From Thunnus maccoyii (lineage: Eukaryota > Chordata > Actinopteri > Scombriformes > Scombridae): 64,000 nt of DNA. Made by a program: the position numbers and the translations under genes. The notes beneath the pieces are model-generated. The model did no database searches, was not told the DNA's origin, and was given only the letters and a program-made list of their open reading frames with translations. Numbering within the stretch: position 1 is the stretch's first letter; each line of letters begins with the position of its first letter. The stretch spans positions 8,845,501 to 8,909,500 of the forward strand of contig NC_056535.1 of NCBI RefSeq assembly GCF_910596095.1, given 5' to 3'. This document shows, in pieces, positions 1 to 6,526 of this stretch.

Positions 1-2315
1 AAATGAGCCGTCTTAGCTTGAAGGAGAATAGTAGCCACAGCGTGTGGAACCAAAACAGTCAAAGATCTGTAAGCCACTAAAGAAGAAGAAGCTGTCACAG
101 CCGCTGCAGCCGCAGCCACTGCTCTAGAACAAGGAGGAAGCCCTCTCACAACAGATGGAAGCCTTTGAGAATAATAAGCAACTGGCTTAAGTTTATCACC
201 ATGCTTCTGAAGCAAAACAGCACTATAAAACCCTTTCTTCTCATCCACTGCCAAAGTGAAATCCCTTGACAAATCAGGAATGCCTAAGGCTGGAGCAGAA
301 GCCAAGGCTTCCTTCAGTTTTACAAAAGAGTTAGTAGCTTCAGGAGTCCAAGTCACTAAGTCATGTGCAGTCAGTCCAGTCGCATGCGCCATGTCTGAAA
401 GTGGTTGAACTATTTTAGCATAATCACAGATCCACTGTCTACAGTAGCCTGTACATCCCAAAAAGGATAGCACCTGTTTCTTCGTCATTGGTTTAGGCAT
501 TGACAGTACCGCTTGAATTCTGTCTTTGCCAATTGTTCGTTTATTTTGTGAGATCTCATGTCCCAAATAGTGCACTTCTTGTTTTACCAGCTGGAGTTTT
601 TCTAGCGATGCTTTATGTCCCTGCAAAGCTAAATATTTTAAAAGGGCGTTTGTATCCGCGATGCAGTTTTCCTCAGATATCGAACACACAAGCAAATCAT
701 CTACATACTGAATTAAAGTACTTCCCTTGGGAAATACAAAACCTGCTAAATTTTCCTGCAATGCAGCTGAATAAACTGTTGGTGATTCTGCAAATCCTTG
801 AGGAACTCTGGTCCAAGTATATTTTTTACCTTTAAAAGTAAAAGCAAACCAATATTGTGAAGCCAGATCAACTGGAACGCTAAAGAAAGCATTTGCCAAA
901 TCTATCACAGTGAACCATTTTGCATTACCAGGTACTGAAGACAAGATTGTAGCTGGATTGGGTACAACTGCTGCACGGGCAAACACAGCTTCATTCACAG
1001 CACGCAGATCATGAACAGGTCGCCAGGATTTGCCATCAGCTTTCTTTATTGGAAGGAGTGGGGTATTACATGGAGAAGTTGGAGCTGGAACAATAATTTT
1101 ATCGTTCAAGAGTTGCTCAATAATAGGAGTCATACCTTCTTCTGCATCGGGCCTCAGAGGATATTGTCGCTTATTAGGCCTGTAATCTGATTTAGGAACC
1201 ACTACTAATGGAGTGGCATCCTTGATCAGACCCACATCATATTTATGTGTTGCCCACAATTGTTTAGGAACACCTTCCAATGCTGGATGGTTTTCTTTAG
1301 ACTCAAAACTGTCCATCACAAAATTATGGACCACAAGGGGAAACTGATCAGCCAATTGAATTGTCCTGTGGGTGCTAAATGTACAGTGGAAAGGATGGAG
1401 AATGACTCCCTTTTCACAGTTCACCTTCTGGCCTATAGCTAAATTAGTGTCACAACAGGACACATCCATGCCTTGTAGTACCATCCCTACATCATAATCT
1501 GAAAGCGCAGGCGAACTGGCCAAAACAACATAAGGGACACCAATCTTCCGAAACACTTTCCTCTGCCTTTCATTTAGATCAACAAGCAAAACAACAAAAT
1601 CCTCTGTGACCACAATACCATTACCATGCAACCTTTCCTCTTGCATTTGTCTGTTCCACTCTTCCTTGAACTGTTCATCTACACCTTCATATGTTACATG
1701 TGACACACACTTATAGCTGCATAAATCCTGTCTAAAAAACATTTCATCACTATGAGTCTCAACAAAATCATGCAATTCCTGCACAACTGAAGAAGGGTCT
1801 ATGCTCCAACAATACTCAACAGCTGGGGAGTGACACACCATAACAGCCAAAGTTTCGTCACAATGATCAGATTTTTTCAACACCAAACCTTTTTCTGTGC
1901 ACTCAATAGTCAAGCCCAAAGCACATAACAAATCTCTTCCTGCCAAATTCACCGGACACTCTGGGACAATGACAAATGAATGCTGTATTTTTGAAACACC
2001 AAATTCCTCACATTCTACTGGACACAGTTTGGTCACCTTACACTTTATAGGTGTTCCGGAGACTCCAATGCAAGTCTTAATTTTTTGAGACAAATGGAAA
2101 GCTTCTGTTGCCGATCTTAATGTTGATTCAGTAGCTCCTGTGTCAGCCAGCATTTCATAGGTGGTGCCGTGGACTGTGATTTTAAACATTGGAAGTTCTT
2201 TAGACTTGAAGCAAAGAGAAAGGTAAAATAGATCAGAGTTTTCAGAATTATTTATTTGAGGTTTTTCACTCTCCTTCTCCTGAATAATAGAAGGATTCGA
2301 GACTTGCTCAGACAG
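1..2315 (-). CDS. pol: Retroviral Pro-Pol, partial (protease and reverse transcriptase)
   Basis: Directly after the gag UGA the same frame stays open for 771 codons to the window edge. The retroviral aspartic protease motif LADTGA is at 2133-2150. Reverse transcriptase follows: a HDLRAVN block near 1000-1020, a VPQGFAESP block near 790-810 and the catalytic YVDD at 696-707. A connection-domain block with PVAYYSQRL lies near 140-180. The remaining RNase H and integrase lie outside the window. The absence of stops or frameshifts over 2.3 kb argues for a recent insertion. No separate start codon is needed if it is made by stop readthrough. Confidence 0.93.
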   Translation of the reverse strand, partial: MSEQVSNPSIIQEKESEKPQINNSENSDLFYLSLCFKSKELPMFKITVHGTTYEMLADTGATESTLRSATEAFHLSQKIKTCIGVSGTPIKCKVTKLCPVECEEFGVSKIQHSFVIVPECPVNLAGRDLLCALGLTIECTEKGLVLKKSDHCDETLAVMVCHSPAVEYCWSIDPSSVVQELHDFVETHSDEMFFRQDLCSYKCVSHVTYEGVDEQFKEEWNRQMQEERLHGNGIVVTEDFVVLLVDLNERQRKVFRKIGVPYVVLASSPALSDYDVGMVLQGMDVSCCDTNLAIGQKVNCEKGVILHPFHCTFSTHRTIQLADQFPLVVHNFVMDSFESKENHPALEGVPKQLWATHKYDVGLIKDATPLVVVPKSDYRPNKRQYPLRPDAEEGMTPIIEQLLNDKIIVPAPTSPCNTPLLPIKKADGKSWRPVHDLRAVNEAVFARAAVVPNPATILSSVPGNAKWFTVIDLANAFFSVPVDLASQYWFAFTFKGKKYTWTRVPQGFAESPTVYSAALQENLAGFVFPKGSTLIQYVDDLLVCSISEENCIADTNALLKYLALQGHKASLEKLQLVKQEVHYLGHEISQNKRTIGKDRIQAVLSMPKPMTKKQVLSFLGCTGYCRQWICDYAKIVQPLSDMAHATGLTAHDLVTWTPEATNSFVKLKEALASAPALGIPDLSRDFTLAVDEKKGFYSAVLLQKHGDKLKPVAYYSQRLPSVVRGLPPCSRAVAAAAAAVTASSSLVAYRSLTVLVPHAVATILLQAKTAH

Positions 2316-2318
2316 TCA
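2316..2318 (-). promoter_or_regulatory. Gag UGA stop, candidate readthrough site
   Basis: Gag ends with UGA followed by CUG, and the pol frame continues from the next codon with no frame change. Gammaretroviruses make Gag-Pol by readthrough of an in-frame stop, and a C after UGA is a known leaky context. No obvious downstream pseudoknot was identified by eye. Confidence 0.7.
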
Positions 2319-4373
2319 TGTTCTCTGTGATAGTTGATTCCTTCTTCCAAATGGTCTATTCACAGACACATTGCCAGGTGGTGGACGTGCCACTCCTTGT
2401 CCACCATCCCATTCCTCCGACATTGCAACAGGACAGTCTCTGGCCCAGTGGCCCATTTGGCCACACTTCCAACAGGCCTCGCTTCCATCTCTATTGTTAA
2501 AGGAGAAGCCTCTACCTCTTCCTCGTCCTCGACCTCTGCCTCTTACAGGTGGAGCATAATAAGCCATCTGAACCATCTGCAATCTTTCAGCCACTACTTT
2601 AGATTTCTTCTTTTGCTGGTTTCTTTCATCCTGAAGAACAGTCTCAGCATGTATGCAATATCTTTTAATGTCATTCAATCTGGCAGTTTGCCATGCCACA
2701 CAGTGTCTGACAAAAATAGCTCTCACTTCCGGAGACAGACCATCCACCAAGGCCTGTACAAACTGTCTTTCCCACACAGTATCATCGACAGTGTTAGCTG
2801 GTTGTTCATTTCCACTATGTGTGTTAAAAACTTGGAGCTTTCTGAAGAAATAATCATCAAACGATTCTTCTGGTTTTTGCACACATGCATTTACAGTTGT
2901 CATATTTATGACTGGTTTAAATTGTGTCACCAATGCTTGACACAAAGCTGCCAGCTGCGTTTGATAAGGGGCGCCATTTGCAACAGTCCATGGGGCAGCT
3001 GGATCCCAATTAGCAGGCTTAACTTCTCCCCAGGCAAGACCCATCTTAGTAGCACAAACGTGCTCCAATTCAGCTGCAGTGGGTTTACACTGTATTACCA
3101 TCTTTGCCAAAGCGTCTGCAAAGACTTTTCCATTATTCTTAGGGTCTGGAAGTTTGTCAATGATAGCCTGCAATTCTGTTATCTTCCATGGTCTATAAAC
3201 ATGCTGTACACCCCCAGCTCCATTAGGGCATTCTATCATTGGGCCAAGAAATGTGTCTCCAAAAGCACCTCCACATGCTCCCTCCTCTGGAGCAGCAGAC
3301 GGAAGATCCAATGTTGAAGCTGACATTGTGGGCTGATAAACAGTTCCTGACCTTGTCATAGCTAGGCCACCTGGATTGAAACTTGTTTTTCTCCTCACCA
3401 CCATTGGAGTCAACCATTCAGCAGCACAAAGACGTGGTGTTCTCTGAGGTGTTAGTGTTGGTGGTTTCATGGCTTGCTCCAGCAACCCAGCATATGGTGG
3501 AGGGGGACGGCTGATAGGTGACACTACAGCAGCTCCTTTACTTTCCTCTGATTCTATAAATACCTCTCCTACAGCTCCTCCTACAGCTCCTTCTCCCAGC
3601 TGTGGGTGATATTGTTGCTCACTGGGAGGAGCCACATCTCCCAACTGTGGAGGAGGACTTCTTGCTGGACAGTCCAACAAATCATCCACCTTATGAACAC
3701 TGACCATAGTAGTAGAGGGCGGTGTTATTTTAGGACGACTGCCAATTATCTGCTTCGTGTGACAAATCTTTCGACTGATGGCATCCCATACCCCAACACA
3801 TTCTATCATATACCCATAATCCCAATCAGAAGGGCCTAAAGGACTGGGTGGAGCTGTTAACTCATGCAACAACAATATCTGAGACTTCTCAAAAGAACCA
3901 CTTCGTGGCCACCGCGAGTCAAAATCTGCTACATGATCACAAAATGGCACTGTGTAATAAGTTGTACTCGTTATTTCTTCAACAAGGGCTTTTGGCGTCA
4001 TTTGTGCCAATTTGTTGTATGTGTCATCCACACACAAGGAAACAAATGTTCTAACACTTTTACACATTTTTTCAGTTCTTTCTCTATTGTCTGCTTCTTT
4101 TTCCCACAATTTCAAACTTTCAATTTGTTTTGTCCATCTATCATTAACCTTCTTAGCAGCTCGTACTTTAGCTTTCTTAATTTTATCCTCAAATCTCTTT
4201 GCTATTTTTTTTCTCAGATTCCTAAGAGAAGCATGTTGTAGACTCCCATATTGAGGAAATCCTGAATTCTTATGCCACTTTGGCAAAAATTGTACGGCAA
4301 CAGAGCCATACTTATCAAACATTTCTTTTGCTGGACTTTGAAGGTTTTTCTGATTGCTGTTAATGGCACCCAT
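2316..4373 (-). CDS. gag: Retroviral Gag polyprotein (intact, endogenous)
   Basis: This 685-residue protein would form the virion core. It starts MGAIN, with Gly2 a likely N-myristoylation site, followed by a basic N-terminal matrix-like region. PPPPY at about residues 290-294 is a PPxY late domain that recruits NEDD4-type ligases. A capsid-like region follows, then a run of alternating RG at about 612-624 and one zinc knuckle of the form CX2CX4HX4C at about 634-647. The start is the first ATG of the frame and the frame is uninterrupted. It ends in TGA directly followed, in the same frame, by the protease region. Long plus-strand ORFs opposite it are antisense shadows. Confidence 0.93.
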   Translation of the reverse strand: MGAINSNQKNLQSPAKEMFDKYGSVAVQFLPKWHKNSGFPQYGSLQHASLRNLRKKIAKRFEDKIKKAKVRAAKKVNDRWTKQIESLKLWEKEADNRERTEKMCKSVRTFVSLCVDDTYNKLAQMTPKALVEEITSTTYYTVPFCDHVADFDSRWPRSGSFEKSQILLLHELTAPPSPLGPSDWDYGYMIECVGVWDAISRKICHTKQIIGSRPKITPPSTTMVSVHKVDDLLDCPARSPPPQLGDVAPPSEQQYHPQLGEGAVGGAVGEVFIESEESKGAAVVSPISRPPPPYAGLLEQAMKPPTLTPQRTPRLCAAEWLTPMVVRRKTSFNPGGLAMTRSGTVYQPTMSASTLDLPSAAPEEGACGGAFGDTFLGPMIECPNGAGGVQHVYRPWKITELQAIIDKLPDPKNNGKVFADALAKMVIQCKPTAAELEHVCATKMGLAWGEVKPANWDPAAPWTVANGAPYQTQLAALCQALVTQFKPVINMTTVNACVQKPEESFDDYFFRKLQVFNTHSGNEQPANTVDDTVWERQFVQALVDGLSPEVRAIFVRHCVAWQTARLNDIKRYCIHAETVLQDERNQQKKKSKVVAERLQMVQMAYYAPPVRGRGRGRGRGRGFSFNNRDGSEACWKCGQMGHWARDCPVAMSEEWDGGQGVARPPPGNVSVNRPFGRRNQLSQRT

Positions 4374-4949
4374 GGCGATTCTGTTCCAATTATATAATAC
4401 TATGTTAAGATATTTAAATAAACACCTTCTAATGAATCTTATATTAACTTTTCCAAAAAGAGAAAGGAAAAAGAAAAAGGAAAGAAACCTTCAAAAAAAA
4501 ACTATCCCTTTTCTTCACCTACTGACATGCACTCAGGGACTGAATGAATGTGTGACAAAAATATCTCCCACAGACTAACTGTCTGCTGTAGAAACAGAGG
4601 AGACAAAATATGTACCAGCTGTCTGATTCCCTAGTCTGACCACTAACCTAATCAGACAAATTACTATTTCTCACACTTCTTTTTGTCCTTTCCTTGTTGA
4701 AAAGAACTTAAAAAAATACGCCACACCAACTGTGCAGTGCGTTCAATAATTTCAATAGGAGAAAGGAAAATTCGACCTTGCTCATCAAGAGATTGATAAT
4801 GCATGCGATGTAAATCACCAAAAAGGTGGACAGGCATCATTAATTACTCATACAAAACAGTCCACATCGAACTATTTTCATTTAGTCTATGCATTCAGCA
4901 TAACTCACTTTTCGTCTTTATTTATTTATTCCATTTATTTATCTTGTTT

Positions 4950-5013
4950 TTTTTTTTGTTTTTGTTTTTTTTTGTTTGTTTTTTTTGTTTTTGTTTTTTT
5001 TTTTTTTTTTTTT
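4950..5013 (-). repeat. A-rich tract in viral sense, leader
   Basis: The plus strand is a T-rich tract with scattered G, so the viral RNA has a long A-rich, C-spotted stretch between the repeats and the gag start. No coding function is seen. Confidence 0.8.
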
Positions 5014-5196
5014 CTCCTTTCTTTTTTCCTCGTGAGTTCAACAACTAATTGTTAGCATTTATGTGGGGAAAAATTTCCTGAACTGGTCTACACCCAGATA
5101 TCAAGCAGACAGAAGCCGCCGACACATAACCACACAGGGAAATGCAGTAACTCAAACAAAGAAAAACAGTACCGTACTAAGCGCTTTTTAACAATT

Positions 5197-5422
5197 TACG
5201 CAGGCTCACATATTGATAGAACTCTGATCTCACCTCGTATCGTACGCAGGCTCACATATTGATAGAACTCTGATCTCACCTCGTATTTTAGGCCTTTTTG
5301 GGGACTCTAACCCCTTTATTTATCTGGCTTTTAGTTACGCAGGCTCACATATTGATGGAACTCTGTTCTCACCTCGTATTGTACGCAGGCTCACGTTTGT
5401 TGTTCCCGATCTTACCTCGCAC
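5197..5422 (-). repeat. Four-copy 44-bp repeat in the retroviral leader
   Basis: Three near-identical 44-bp copies (5197-5240, 5243-5286, 5336-5379) and one diverged copy (5382-5422) begin TACGCAGGCTCAC on the plus strand and end in CCTCG plus a short tail. In viral sense each carries GAG followed by GTGAGA, or GTAAGA in the diverged copy, which is a good 5' splice-site match. Junctions would lie at 5234/5233, 5280/5279, 5373/5372 and 5416/5415. The repeats are between the primer site and gag, where the major splice donor of a retrovirus belongs. Confidence 0.85.
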
Positions 5423-5543
5423 TTTTAGCCTTGGGGACTCTAACCCCTATTAGCTTTTATCAAGGACTCTAACCTTGAAAGGGACCCTGGCAGCGGACTC
5501 TAACCCTGCCTTTTTTACAGTGCACACAGGGGACTCCAACCCC
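5300..5543 (-). other. Five hairpins with a shared 7-nt loop in the retroviral leader
   Basis: Five short inverted repeats enclose the loop ACTCTAA (four times) or ACTCCAA (once) on the plus strand, i.e. TTAGAGT or TTGGAGT in viral RNA. Positions are 5300-5314, 5433-5447, 5460-5478, 5489-5510 and 5529-5543. Stems are GGGG/CCCC in three, TCAAGG/CCTTGA in one, and GGCAG-GG/CC-CTGCC with a bulged C in another. Stem bases differ between units but stay complementary while the loop is kept, which suggests structure is what matters. A packaging or nucleocapsid-binding role is inference only. Confidence 0.7.
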
Positions 5544-5839
5544 AAACCAACCTTATGACTCCACTATTTCAACAACCAACAATGCATAGTCAAACCCACC
5601 AATTTAGAATTTAAAAGCAACAAACAAATGCAATTTCCACATAATCAGATCAACAGTTGCCAATACAAGTCCCCATAAAAGTGGTTCTTTCAACTTACTG
5701 CCGTCCCGTTTCTCGAAAGGAAGACGTCAGGCGTCCCGAAAAAAACCCTTTCTTACTGGGCGTCGAGGTTCCTCAGTCTCCTAGGACTGTCCCGATCGTG
5801 GAGTCCGTCAGTCTTACGAGAAAAGGTCGGCAGGTTAGC

Positions 5840-5857
5840 ATCCCGGACGAGCCCCCA
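5840..5857 (-). other. Primer binding site, tRNA-Pro type
   Basis: The minus strand reads TGGGGGCTCGTCCGGGAT, the 18-nt proline tRNA primer site known from murine leukaemia-type gammaretroviruses. It starts two bases after the LTR end, the expected position for minus-strand DNA priming. Confidence 0.95.
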
Positions 5858-5859
5858 AA

Positions 5860-6526
5860 TGTAATGGGAAATTGCTGATCACTCAATAAACACACAAGAG
5901 AGCATTGTCAGGTTATGAAATAGTGTAATCAAATAATACAATCAGAAGTATAATGCATCATAGTTCTGGAGACAAAGATACGTACCACCTAGCTATCTTT
6001 TCTTTGTCTGAAAGGTTGGCACTTAACCAGTCCCTTAAATACTACTTGTACAGAATTTATGACATCTGCTTACTAACCTTACAGGTCAGCAACCAACCCT
6101 CAGATAGAAACATAGGTCAGAAGTTCAGCTAACCTAGGAACAGTCTTTCTTTACGACCATATATGACAGTACATAAGCATGCACCAAGTAGCATCACAAA
6201 ATAACATCCCTGCTATATTAAATTAAGGACAAACCACACTATCCTCTAAAGCTTATCAGTTTTACACATAAACATCTACATAACTACAGTTTATCTTATC
6301 ACTGGCTCAGGTAAGGGTACAACAGAATAGACTTAACTGTTAAACACACAACTGCCTCATCTTACACAGCAAAGAACTAAGTTTAGAATATATATAGCAC
6401 AGAGGAATTTAGAACATGTGTGAAACACTAACTAACACTAAACTGAACTTAAACACTGTCTGAAACATGTATGATATATTGAAGAAATACATCAAATGAT
6501 AACCTGTGATTCAGTTTTCTTTTACA
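5860..6526 (-). repeat. 5' LTR of the endogenous retrovirus
   Basis: The inner boundary is fixed by the primer site two bases away. The outer boundary is chosen because the element then starts TGTAA and ends TTACA on the minus strand, the usual LTR inverted repeat; length is 667 bp. A minus-strand TATATATA at 6389-6396 is a plausible TATA box, and GATAAA at 6290-6295 a possible weak poly(A) signal downstream of it. No canonical AATAAA is seen on the minus strand, so the R/U5 limits are guesses. The outer end could move if the 3' LTR were available for comparison. Confidence 0.75.

What the first reader, a model, noticed from the sequence alone, without database searches (positions are those of the whole stretch)
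5300..5543. Five leader hairpins with one loop sequence and different stems
The loop ACTCTAA (viral TTAGAGT) occurs four times and ACTCCAA once, each closed by GG/CC. The outer stem pairs differ (GGGG/CCCC, TCAAGG/CCTTGA, GGCAG-GG/CC-CTGCC) yet remain complementary. Loop conservation with covarying stems is the mark of a selected RNA element. Between primer site and gag, a packaging or dimerisation signal, or a nucleocapsid-recognised array, is the natural guess. A 7-nt loop on a short stem also resembles an anticodon arm in shape.
Basis: partly seen in the sequence, partly recalled or inferred. Interest (0 to 1): 0.78.

Follow-up and report, generated by a model that had tools for sequence, protein, structure and literature searches.

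The report
T-arm-like hairpin array in retroviral leader
The untranslated leader of an inherited retrovirus in an animal genome carries a row of small RNA hairpins that look like one arm of a transfer RNA, and a gene-less element keeps the same row almost letter for letter, which suggests a signal for getting RNA into virus particles.

Summary
Five GGTTRGAGTCC units lie at 5302-5541 (minus strand), in the leader of an endogenous retrovirus between a tRNA-Pro-type primer site and an intact gag frame. Their outer stems differ but pair: flank permutation over seven distinct units reaches the observed energy in 9 of 5040 cases, and 0 of 500 shuffles reach the covariation of 12 unit rows. The whole leader folds no better than shuffles, and unit A1 is outcompeted in longer folds. 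The genome has at least 24 leaders matching the array. The loop, UUNRAGU in most units and closed by G-C, fits a tRNA T-arm better than an anticodon arm; a sixth unit, deleted here, reads GGTTCGAGTCC in 11 of 15 copies of a second lineage. That lineage is a non-autonomous LTR element without genes. One pair compared (L034, L038) shares 338 nt of array with 4 differences and a gag stub at 98.8%, against mostly 40-69% in LTR and flanking leader. Best reading: a modular cis-acting RNA signal, most likely for encapsidation or co-packaging. The T-loop fold is inferred; packaging is untested.

The parts
5840..5857 (-). primer binding site TGGGGGCTCGTCCGGGAT, tRNA-Pro type
   Evidence: sequence; 17-mer located at 5856-5840; the tRNA-Pro name is recalled, the host tRNA search in its corrected form did not complete
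5694..5836 (-). domain just after the primer site, closed by a long inverted repeat, with 5 of the leader's 6 GACG motifs
   Evidence: z = -2.07, 10 of 300 shuffles fold as well; the post-primer bins are 65-69% identical between L034 and L038
5529..5543 (-). unit A1, GGGG[UUGGAGU]CCCC; seen in a-type leaders only
   Evidence: does not form with 80 nt or more of context
5489..5510 (-). unit A2, GGCAG GG[UUAGAGU]CC g CUGCC, one bulge
5460..5478 (-). unit A3, UCAAGG[UUAGAGU]CCUUGA
5433..5447 (-). unit A4, GGGG[UUAGAGU]CCCC
5300..5314 (-). unit A5, GGGG[UUAGAGU]CCCC
5166..5182 (-). stump of a sixth unit (A6), deleted in this copy; present in L033, L034, L036 and lineage b
   Evidence: alignment; units
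5381..5422 (-). repeat B1 (second hairpin type, GUGCGAGGU...AGCCUGCGUA)
5336..5378 (-). repeat B2 (UACGAGGU...AGCCUGCGUA)
5243..5285 (-). repeat B3
5197..5239 (-). repeat B4, a fourth B found among the 24 copies only here and in L032
5148..5510 (-). window stretch that corresponds to the module shared by lineages a and b (A2 to past A6). In L034 versus L038 it is 338 nt with 4 differences; the window copy differs by having B4 and lacking A6
4202..4286 (-). gag nt 88-172, kept as a stub in the gene-less lineage b (98.8% over 86 aligned positions, L038)
2316..4373 (-). intact gag frame, 685 aa, one CCHC zinc knuckle

Best explanation
The feature is a modular cis-acting RNA signal in the leader of an endogenous retrovirus family. 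It is an array of five to six short hairpins with a T-arm-like loop (mostly UUNRAGU, closed by G-C), interleaved with a second hairpin repeat of about 43 nt (B). Its most likely job is to mark genomic RNA for encapsidation or co-packaging by the family's Gag/nucleocapsid, with the repeated loops as multivalent docking sites. Shown: the repeated loops, the varied but complementary stems, the presence in all five full-length-gag copies, and the near-identity of this block in a gene-less LTR element whose LTRs and flanking leader have diverged. Inferred: that the RNA folds this way in virions, that the loop adopts the T-loop fold, that Gag/NC binds it, and that family a was the helper of family b.
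For: (1) Stems covary between units. (2) The array region matches 24 places in the genome (a lower bound, window included), among them 5 of 5 copies with a full-length gag frame without stops (65 of 184 gag candidates were scored); 110 of 112 exact GGTTNNAGTCC units in the 24 copies keep at least 2 outer pairs, one bulge allowed, though most copies are near-identical. (3) With 80 nt of context on each side, 13 of 15 units of L034, L038 and L054 form with probability 0.73 or more. (4) Lineage b (L037-L051, 15 copies): L038 has LTRs 99.67% identical over 599 nt and, from primer site to the end of the locus, no stop-to-stop frame over 60 aa forward or 88 aa reverse; 10 of the 15 copies show an LTR pair 2755-2790 bp apart (40 of 449 candidate LTRs scored). 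(5) L034 versus L038: LTR bins mostly 40-53%, post-primer leader 65-69%, array block 338 nt with 4 differences and sharp ends, about 59% just after it, gag stub 98.8%. (6) Two older copies show the same contrast: L052 (a-type) versus L053 (b-type) 88.8% in A2-A4 but 61.3% upstream. (7) Two of the 4 differences lengthen the A4 stem in b and one is loop position 3 of A6. (8) Packaging signals with exposed loop purines are known (PMC8096270, abstract; PMC7599994, passages).
Against: No experiment or expression data. The whole leader is not unusually stable. A1 does not form with 80 nt or more of context; the A6 equivalent of L054 does not form at all (0.02-0.05); with 150 nt of context A4 of L034 and A3 of L038 fail (0.06, 0.00) and A6 of L038 is weak (0.34). 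The two most diverged leaders, L054 and L110, show no raised identity in the array stretch (58-70% to the others, no higher than upstream on the whole). The a/b identity could come from one or a few recombination events without function. The orthologous covariation test gives no support. Substitution types per column are not strongly lower inside the units: 0.83 at loop positions 3-4, 0.59 at the other loop positions, 0.73 at GG/CC, 0.65 in outer stems, 0.87 elsewhere (which includes rows not homologous at A1, A5 and A6). A structured, GACG-rich domain next to the primer site is a rival place for the packaging signal. Helper and element also share two short LTR stretches at 76-80% and the primer region.
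Confidence: 0.48

Rival explanations
1. tRNA T-arm mimicry proper: the loops fold as T-loops and recruit a tRNA-handling partner (synthetase complex, a T-arm modifying enzyme, or the primer tRNA's elbow through paired T-loops), helping primer placement rather than packaging.
For: The loop with G-C closure fits the T-loop description in PMC4810234 (passages): residues 1 and 5 form a U-A pair, a U-turn lies between, residue 3 is unstacked. A6 is exactly GGTTCGAGTCC in 11 of 15 b copies. In L054 loop changes fall at positions 3-4 in 6 of 8 cases and at the other five positions in 0 of 20 (table made by hand; Fisher p = 7e-5; units were found with a pattern that allows at most two mismatches, which favours this). 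HIV-1 has a tRNA-like element near its primer site (PMC11181671, passages).
Against: Position 3 (C56 in tRNA) is A or G in all five window units. Position 4 is C in two of four L054 units, against the UNR rule. No tRNA was found in the window and no D-loop-like partner was identified. The array starts about 300 nt downstream of the primer site.
Confidence: 0.2
2. Recombination relic: the a/b identity reflects template switching that moved the array and gag stub between lineages, with no function for the hairpins themselves.
For: Lineages are near-identical within themselves; the block has sharp ends; recombination hotspots have been linked to RNA hairpins (PMC5086612, passages); L054 and L110 show no raised identity in the block.
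Against: Older copies of both types show the same contrast (L052 versus L053), so a single recent event is not enough; the stems covary between units.
Confidence: 0.17
3. Binding sites for a host RNA-binding protein acting in export, splicing or translation of the unspliced RNA, or a translation element of the long leader.
For: A leader of about 1.47 kb usually needs help for export or translation (established knowledge); A-G at loop positions 5-6 is the same in all 120 units counted (a count that favours the search pattern).
Against: A gene-less element that need not translate anything keeps the array.
Confidence: 0.1
4. Neutral short repeats: tandem duplication made the units, and the stems pair by chance.
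For: A4-B1-B2 and A5-B3-B4 are duplicates of one another; whole-leader folding is ordinary.
Against: a third lineage (L054) has an 8-pair stem of different sequence at the A2 position, formed with probability 0.73 in an 80-nt context, although the single best fold of a 300-nt piece does not contain it.
Confidence: 0.05

Closest known systems
tRNA T-arm / T-loop motif (PMC4810234, passages)
   Same: 7-nt loop on a G-C-closed stem, U at 1 and 2, A at 5, purine at 4 in most units, variable position 3
   Different: C56 replaced by A or G in the window; no D-loop partner known; arranged as an array; fold not shown
HIV-1 tRNA-like element by the primer site (PMC11181671, passages)
   Same: tRNA-like hairpin in a retroviral leader
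   Different: that element mimics an anticodon arm and is bound by LysRS; here a T-arm-like array about 300 nt from the primer site
Gammaretroviral encapsidation signal with GACG hairpin pair (PMC7599994, passages and reference list)
   Same: leader hairpins before gag; the domain at 5694-5836 carries 5 GACG motifs
   Different: array loops are heptaloops; no Rfam family matched
MMTV purine-loop packaging site (PMC8096270, abstract)
   Same: unpaired purines in a leader stem-loop
   Different: one purine loop and the primer site there, five to six repeated loops here; Gag binding untested
Non-autonomous LTR elements mobilised by a helper, such as mouse VL30 (recalled)
   Same: LTRs, primer site, leader and a gag remnant without genes
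   Different: here the leader block and gag stub match another lineage far better than the LTRs do

Membership tests
T-loop motif | 7-nt loop closed by a Watson-Crick pair | tested here: met
   by sequence, all five window units have a G-C closing pair
T-loop motif | U at 1 and A at 5 (reverse Hoogsteen pair) | tested here: met
   by sequence only: 5 of 5 window units; in A2-A4 no change at either position among 23 aligned copies
T-loop motif | U-turn UNR at 2-4 | tested here: inconclusive
   met in 5 of 5 window units; position 4 is C in 2 of 4 L054 units
T-loop motif | three-dimensional fold and tertiary partner | not testable with these tools
   needs probing or NMR
complete tRNA or tRNA gene | cloverleaf found by ARAGORN | tested here: not met
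   0 genes in the window
gammaretroviral encapsidation signal as an Rfam family (name recalled) | covariance model match in the leader | tested here: not met
   none among the 8 matches up to E = 10 in 4374-5900
retroviral packaging signal | in the leader between primer site and gag | tested here: met
retroviral packaging signal | retained by gene-less elements of the family | tested here: met
retroviral packaging signal | binds Gag/NC and is needed for RNA incorporation | not testable with these tools
   bench assay needed
dimerisation initiation loop | self-complementary loop | tested here: not met
   UUAGAGU and UUGGAGU are not palindromic (sequence reading)
non-autonomous LTR element (lineage b) | paired LTRs, primer site, no genes | tested here: met
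   primer site in 15 of 15 copies; LTR pairs in 10 of 15 plus one interrupted copy; frames checked in L038

The most novel reading that the evidence does not exclude
A retrovirus family uses a multivalent array of tRNA T-arm mimics as its genome-recognition tag. T-loops grip tRNA or a tRNA-binding factor, coupling primer-tRNA capture to packaging, and a gene-less parasite has kept or taken over exactly this tag to ride in the helper's particles.
Probability: 0.12. Interest if true: 0.85.

Novelty: new variant of a known kind. Interest (0 to 1): 0.6.

Why it matters
If right, one genome contains a natural experiment on what a retroviral RNA must carry to be mobilised: two lineages with diverged LTRs and leaders share a short hairpin array and a gag stub at near identity. 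It would give a packaging signal made of repeated T-arm-like loops, and link tRNA mimicry to genome selection.

Tried and rejected
Relatives outside this genome: gag and pol scans of viral contigs and a gag-alignment scan of prokaryote contigs confirmed none. The 15-mer GGGGTTAGAGTCCCC gave 19 viral contigs with one match each, followed only by motif counts and by tRNA scans of 8 of the 22 viral loci (0 tRNAs). The two-unit pattern gave 3 viral contigs with repeats that I judged unrelated by eye. A conserved 24-mer of the leader gave 0. Gag relatives from the protein search (P0001-P0003) come without DNA context. In the genome the looser two-unit pattern has 52 matches, all but two at places already known for this family, but the control (pattern read backwards) has 31. 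Of the more distant gag loci I fetched stretches upstream of 4: one (L110) has two decayed units; L111-L113 show no clear unit and no DNA similarity to the known leaders, so they may hold no leader.

Anticodon mimicry of tRNA-Pro: the recalled tRNA-Pro anticodon loop UUNGGGU differs from UUNGAGU at one position, but the A at position 5 and the GG/CC closure fit a T-arm better. The host tRNA search was answered only for a pattern one base too long (0 matches). RNA polymerase III B-box (recalled consensus): A6 of lineage b matches it, but stem conservation argues for RNA, and the window units lack C56.

Literature: the listings of searches showed no title or abstract about T-arm-like hairpins in a retroviral leader. 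Two fish-ERV papers do not use the word leader (PMC8672886, PMC4977317; term search), and passages of PMC3601003 did not bear on it. Most subscription papers are not held.

Full report
What is there. The finding lies on the minus strand in the leader of an endogenous retrovirus. In order there are an LTR end, a tRNA-Pro-type primer site (5857-5840; the tRNA name is recalled), a leader of about 1.47 kb, an intact 685-aa gag frame with one CCHC knuckle (4373-2316) and, after a TGA in the same frame, an open pro-pol frame that leaves the window.

The units. Five 11-mers GGTTRGAGTCC occur as stated. I call them A1 (5531) to A5 (5302) in viral order. A4-B1-B2 and A5-B3-B4 are duplicates of each other (about 84% identical), B being a repeat of about 43 nt that can also form a hairpin. 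The T-loop-type hairpin search of the window finds 4 hits, all in this leader; 30 shuffles average 1.97 per window, largest 5.

Stems. With the five window units alone the permutation test is weak (14 of 120; 8 of 120). The genome supplies a sixth unit, A6 (AGUACGG/CCGUGCU, longer with G-U pairs), and a third lineage, L054, in which the A2 position has an 8-pair stem AAGUGGGG/CCCCAUUU. Over seven distinct units, 9 of 5040 flank permutations reach the observed energy, and 19 and 28 of 5040 reach two pairing scores. On 12 distinct unit rows, 90.3% of cells pair against 69.9% shuffled, 17 cells change on both sides against 7.2 (0 of 500 shuffles in both), and sliding the partner lowers pairing to 62.5% or less; two cruder counts (pairs with a change on both sides, further pair types) do not exceed shuffles. 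A2 was dropped from that count because of its bulge, and several rows are related. The orthologous alignment of 9 leaders does not show covariation (term +1.49; 6 of 79 pairs changed on both sides).

Folding in context. The leader 5197-5839 is no more stable than shuffles (z -0.02) and the array only slightly so (z -1.0). In the window, A3 forms in every context tried; A2 forms in most (not with 40 nt of context); A4 and A5 form with up to 150 nt but lose to long-range pairing in the full leader; A1 forms with up to 40 nt only. In L034, L038 and L054 together, 13 of 15 units form with probability 0.73 or more at 80 nt of context; the failures are A1 of L034 and the A6 equivalent of L054, and three more units fail or weaken at 150 nt.

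The loop. In the aligned A2-A4 units of 23 copies, loop changes occur only at positions 3 and 4. In L054, changes fall at positions 3-4 in 6 of 8 cases and elsewhere in 0 of 20 (Fisher p = 7e-5; table made by hand, categories chosen after seeing the data). [quoted passage not shown] A6 of lineage b is GGTTCGAGTCC in 11 of 15 copies, a canonical T-arm sequence (recalled). An anticodon-loop frame would instead leave positions 3-5 variable. I hold the T-loop fold as plausible but unproven, about 0.45.

Copies. A DNA search with the array finds 24 places, window included (a lower bound); L054 used as query finds only places already known. A two-unit pattern has 52 matches in the genome, all but two (C10:832904, C12:33613410) at places of this family; the control pattern read backwards has 31 matches, so the count alone is not telling. 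Lineage a (L031-L035) has five full-length gag frames without stops, about 100% identical to the window's (65 of 184 candidates scored), and all five carry 5 to 6 units; three of them lack A6 and one (L035) has a broken A5 stem.

The gene-less lineage. L037-L051 (15 copies) match L038 at about 95-99% over the aligned parts. L038 has a 5' LTR, primer site, leader, array and gag stub, no stop-to-stop frame over 60 aa forward or 88 aa reverse from primer site to the end of the locus, and a 3' LTR 99.67% identical to the 5' LTR over 599 nt. Of 40 scored LTR places (449 candidates), 10 pairs lie 2755-2790 bp apart and one pair 11,405 bp apart; in the latter copy (L045) the leader breaks off after the array, and a stretch further on holds a 982-aa Ty3-like frame on the other strand. 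Hence a young non-autonomous element of about 3.4 kb.

The shared module. Between L034 (a) and L038 (b), LTR bins are mostly 40-53% identical (two short stretches reach 76-80%), the post-primer leader 65-69%, then 338 nt from A2 to past A6 hold 4 differences, then identity drops to about 59%; the gag stub (gag nt 88-172) is 98.8% identical. Of the 4 differences, two adjoin A4 and lengthen its stem in b, and one is loop position 3 of A6. Older copies repeat the pattern: L052 (a-type) versus L053 (b-type) 88.8% in A2-A4 and 61.3% upstream. L054 and L110 do not: their array stretch is 58-70% identical to the others, although three of four L054 units still fold.

Interpretation. What helper and gene-less element must share is what lets the element's RNA be used by the helper's proteins. 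The array and the start of gag are the best-matched parts, as expected for a packaging region, and recombination between co-packaged RNAs (PMC5086612, passages) could have moved them. I therefore favour an encapsidation or co-packaging module (0.48), with tRNA mimicry for primer handling (0.2) and a functionless recombination relic (0.17) as main rivals. I have not shown that family a mobilised family b, nor that selection rather than exchange keeps the block alike. The domain next to the primer site, with 5 GACG motifs and z -2.07, may be a second or the main signal.

Known or new. No Rfam family reaches its gathering score in the window, and none of the 8 weak matches in the leader is a retroviral family. 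Passages and abstracts seen cover leader tRNA mimicry in HIV-1 and purine-loop packaging in MMTV; the search listings showed no T-arm-like array. I rate it a new variant of a known kind.

Noticed in passing
window 5694-5836: Post-primer domain closed by a long inverted repeat, with 5 GACG motifs in about 110 nt, reminiscent of gammaretroviral GACG hairpins.
   Followed up: partly
window 2310-2325: gag and pro-pol are in one frame separated by TGA (TGA CTG), suggesting stop readthrough.
   Followed up: no
L038 and L114: Young gene-less LTR family (about 3.4 kb, 10 LTR pairs seen, further LTR places without a partner in the scored list) that keeps the array and a gag stub.
   Followed up: yes
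L045 and L115 (G000:C13:14364716-14376709): A copy of the gene-less element with LTRs 11.4 kb apart; the stretch between them holds a Ty3-like 982-aa open frame on the other strand.
   Followed up: partly
window 5197-5422: B repeats of about 43 nt with well-kept arms (ACGAGGT...GTGAGCCTGCGTA) and variable middles; the window copy and L032 have a fourth B and lack A6.
   Followed up: partly
L020, L021, L022: Viral contigs with several GGTTGGAGTCC repeats, apparently unrelated.
   Followed up: no
window 4945-5020: Long A-rich tract in the leader, of different length and make-up in the related copy L034.
   Followed up: no
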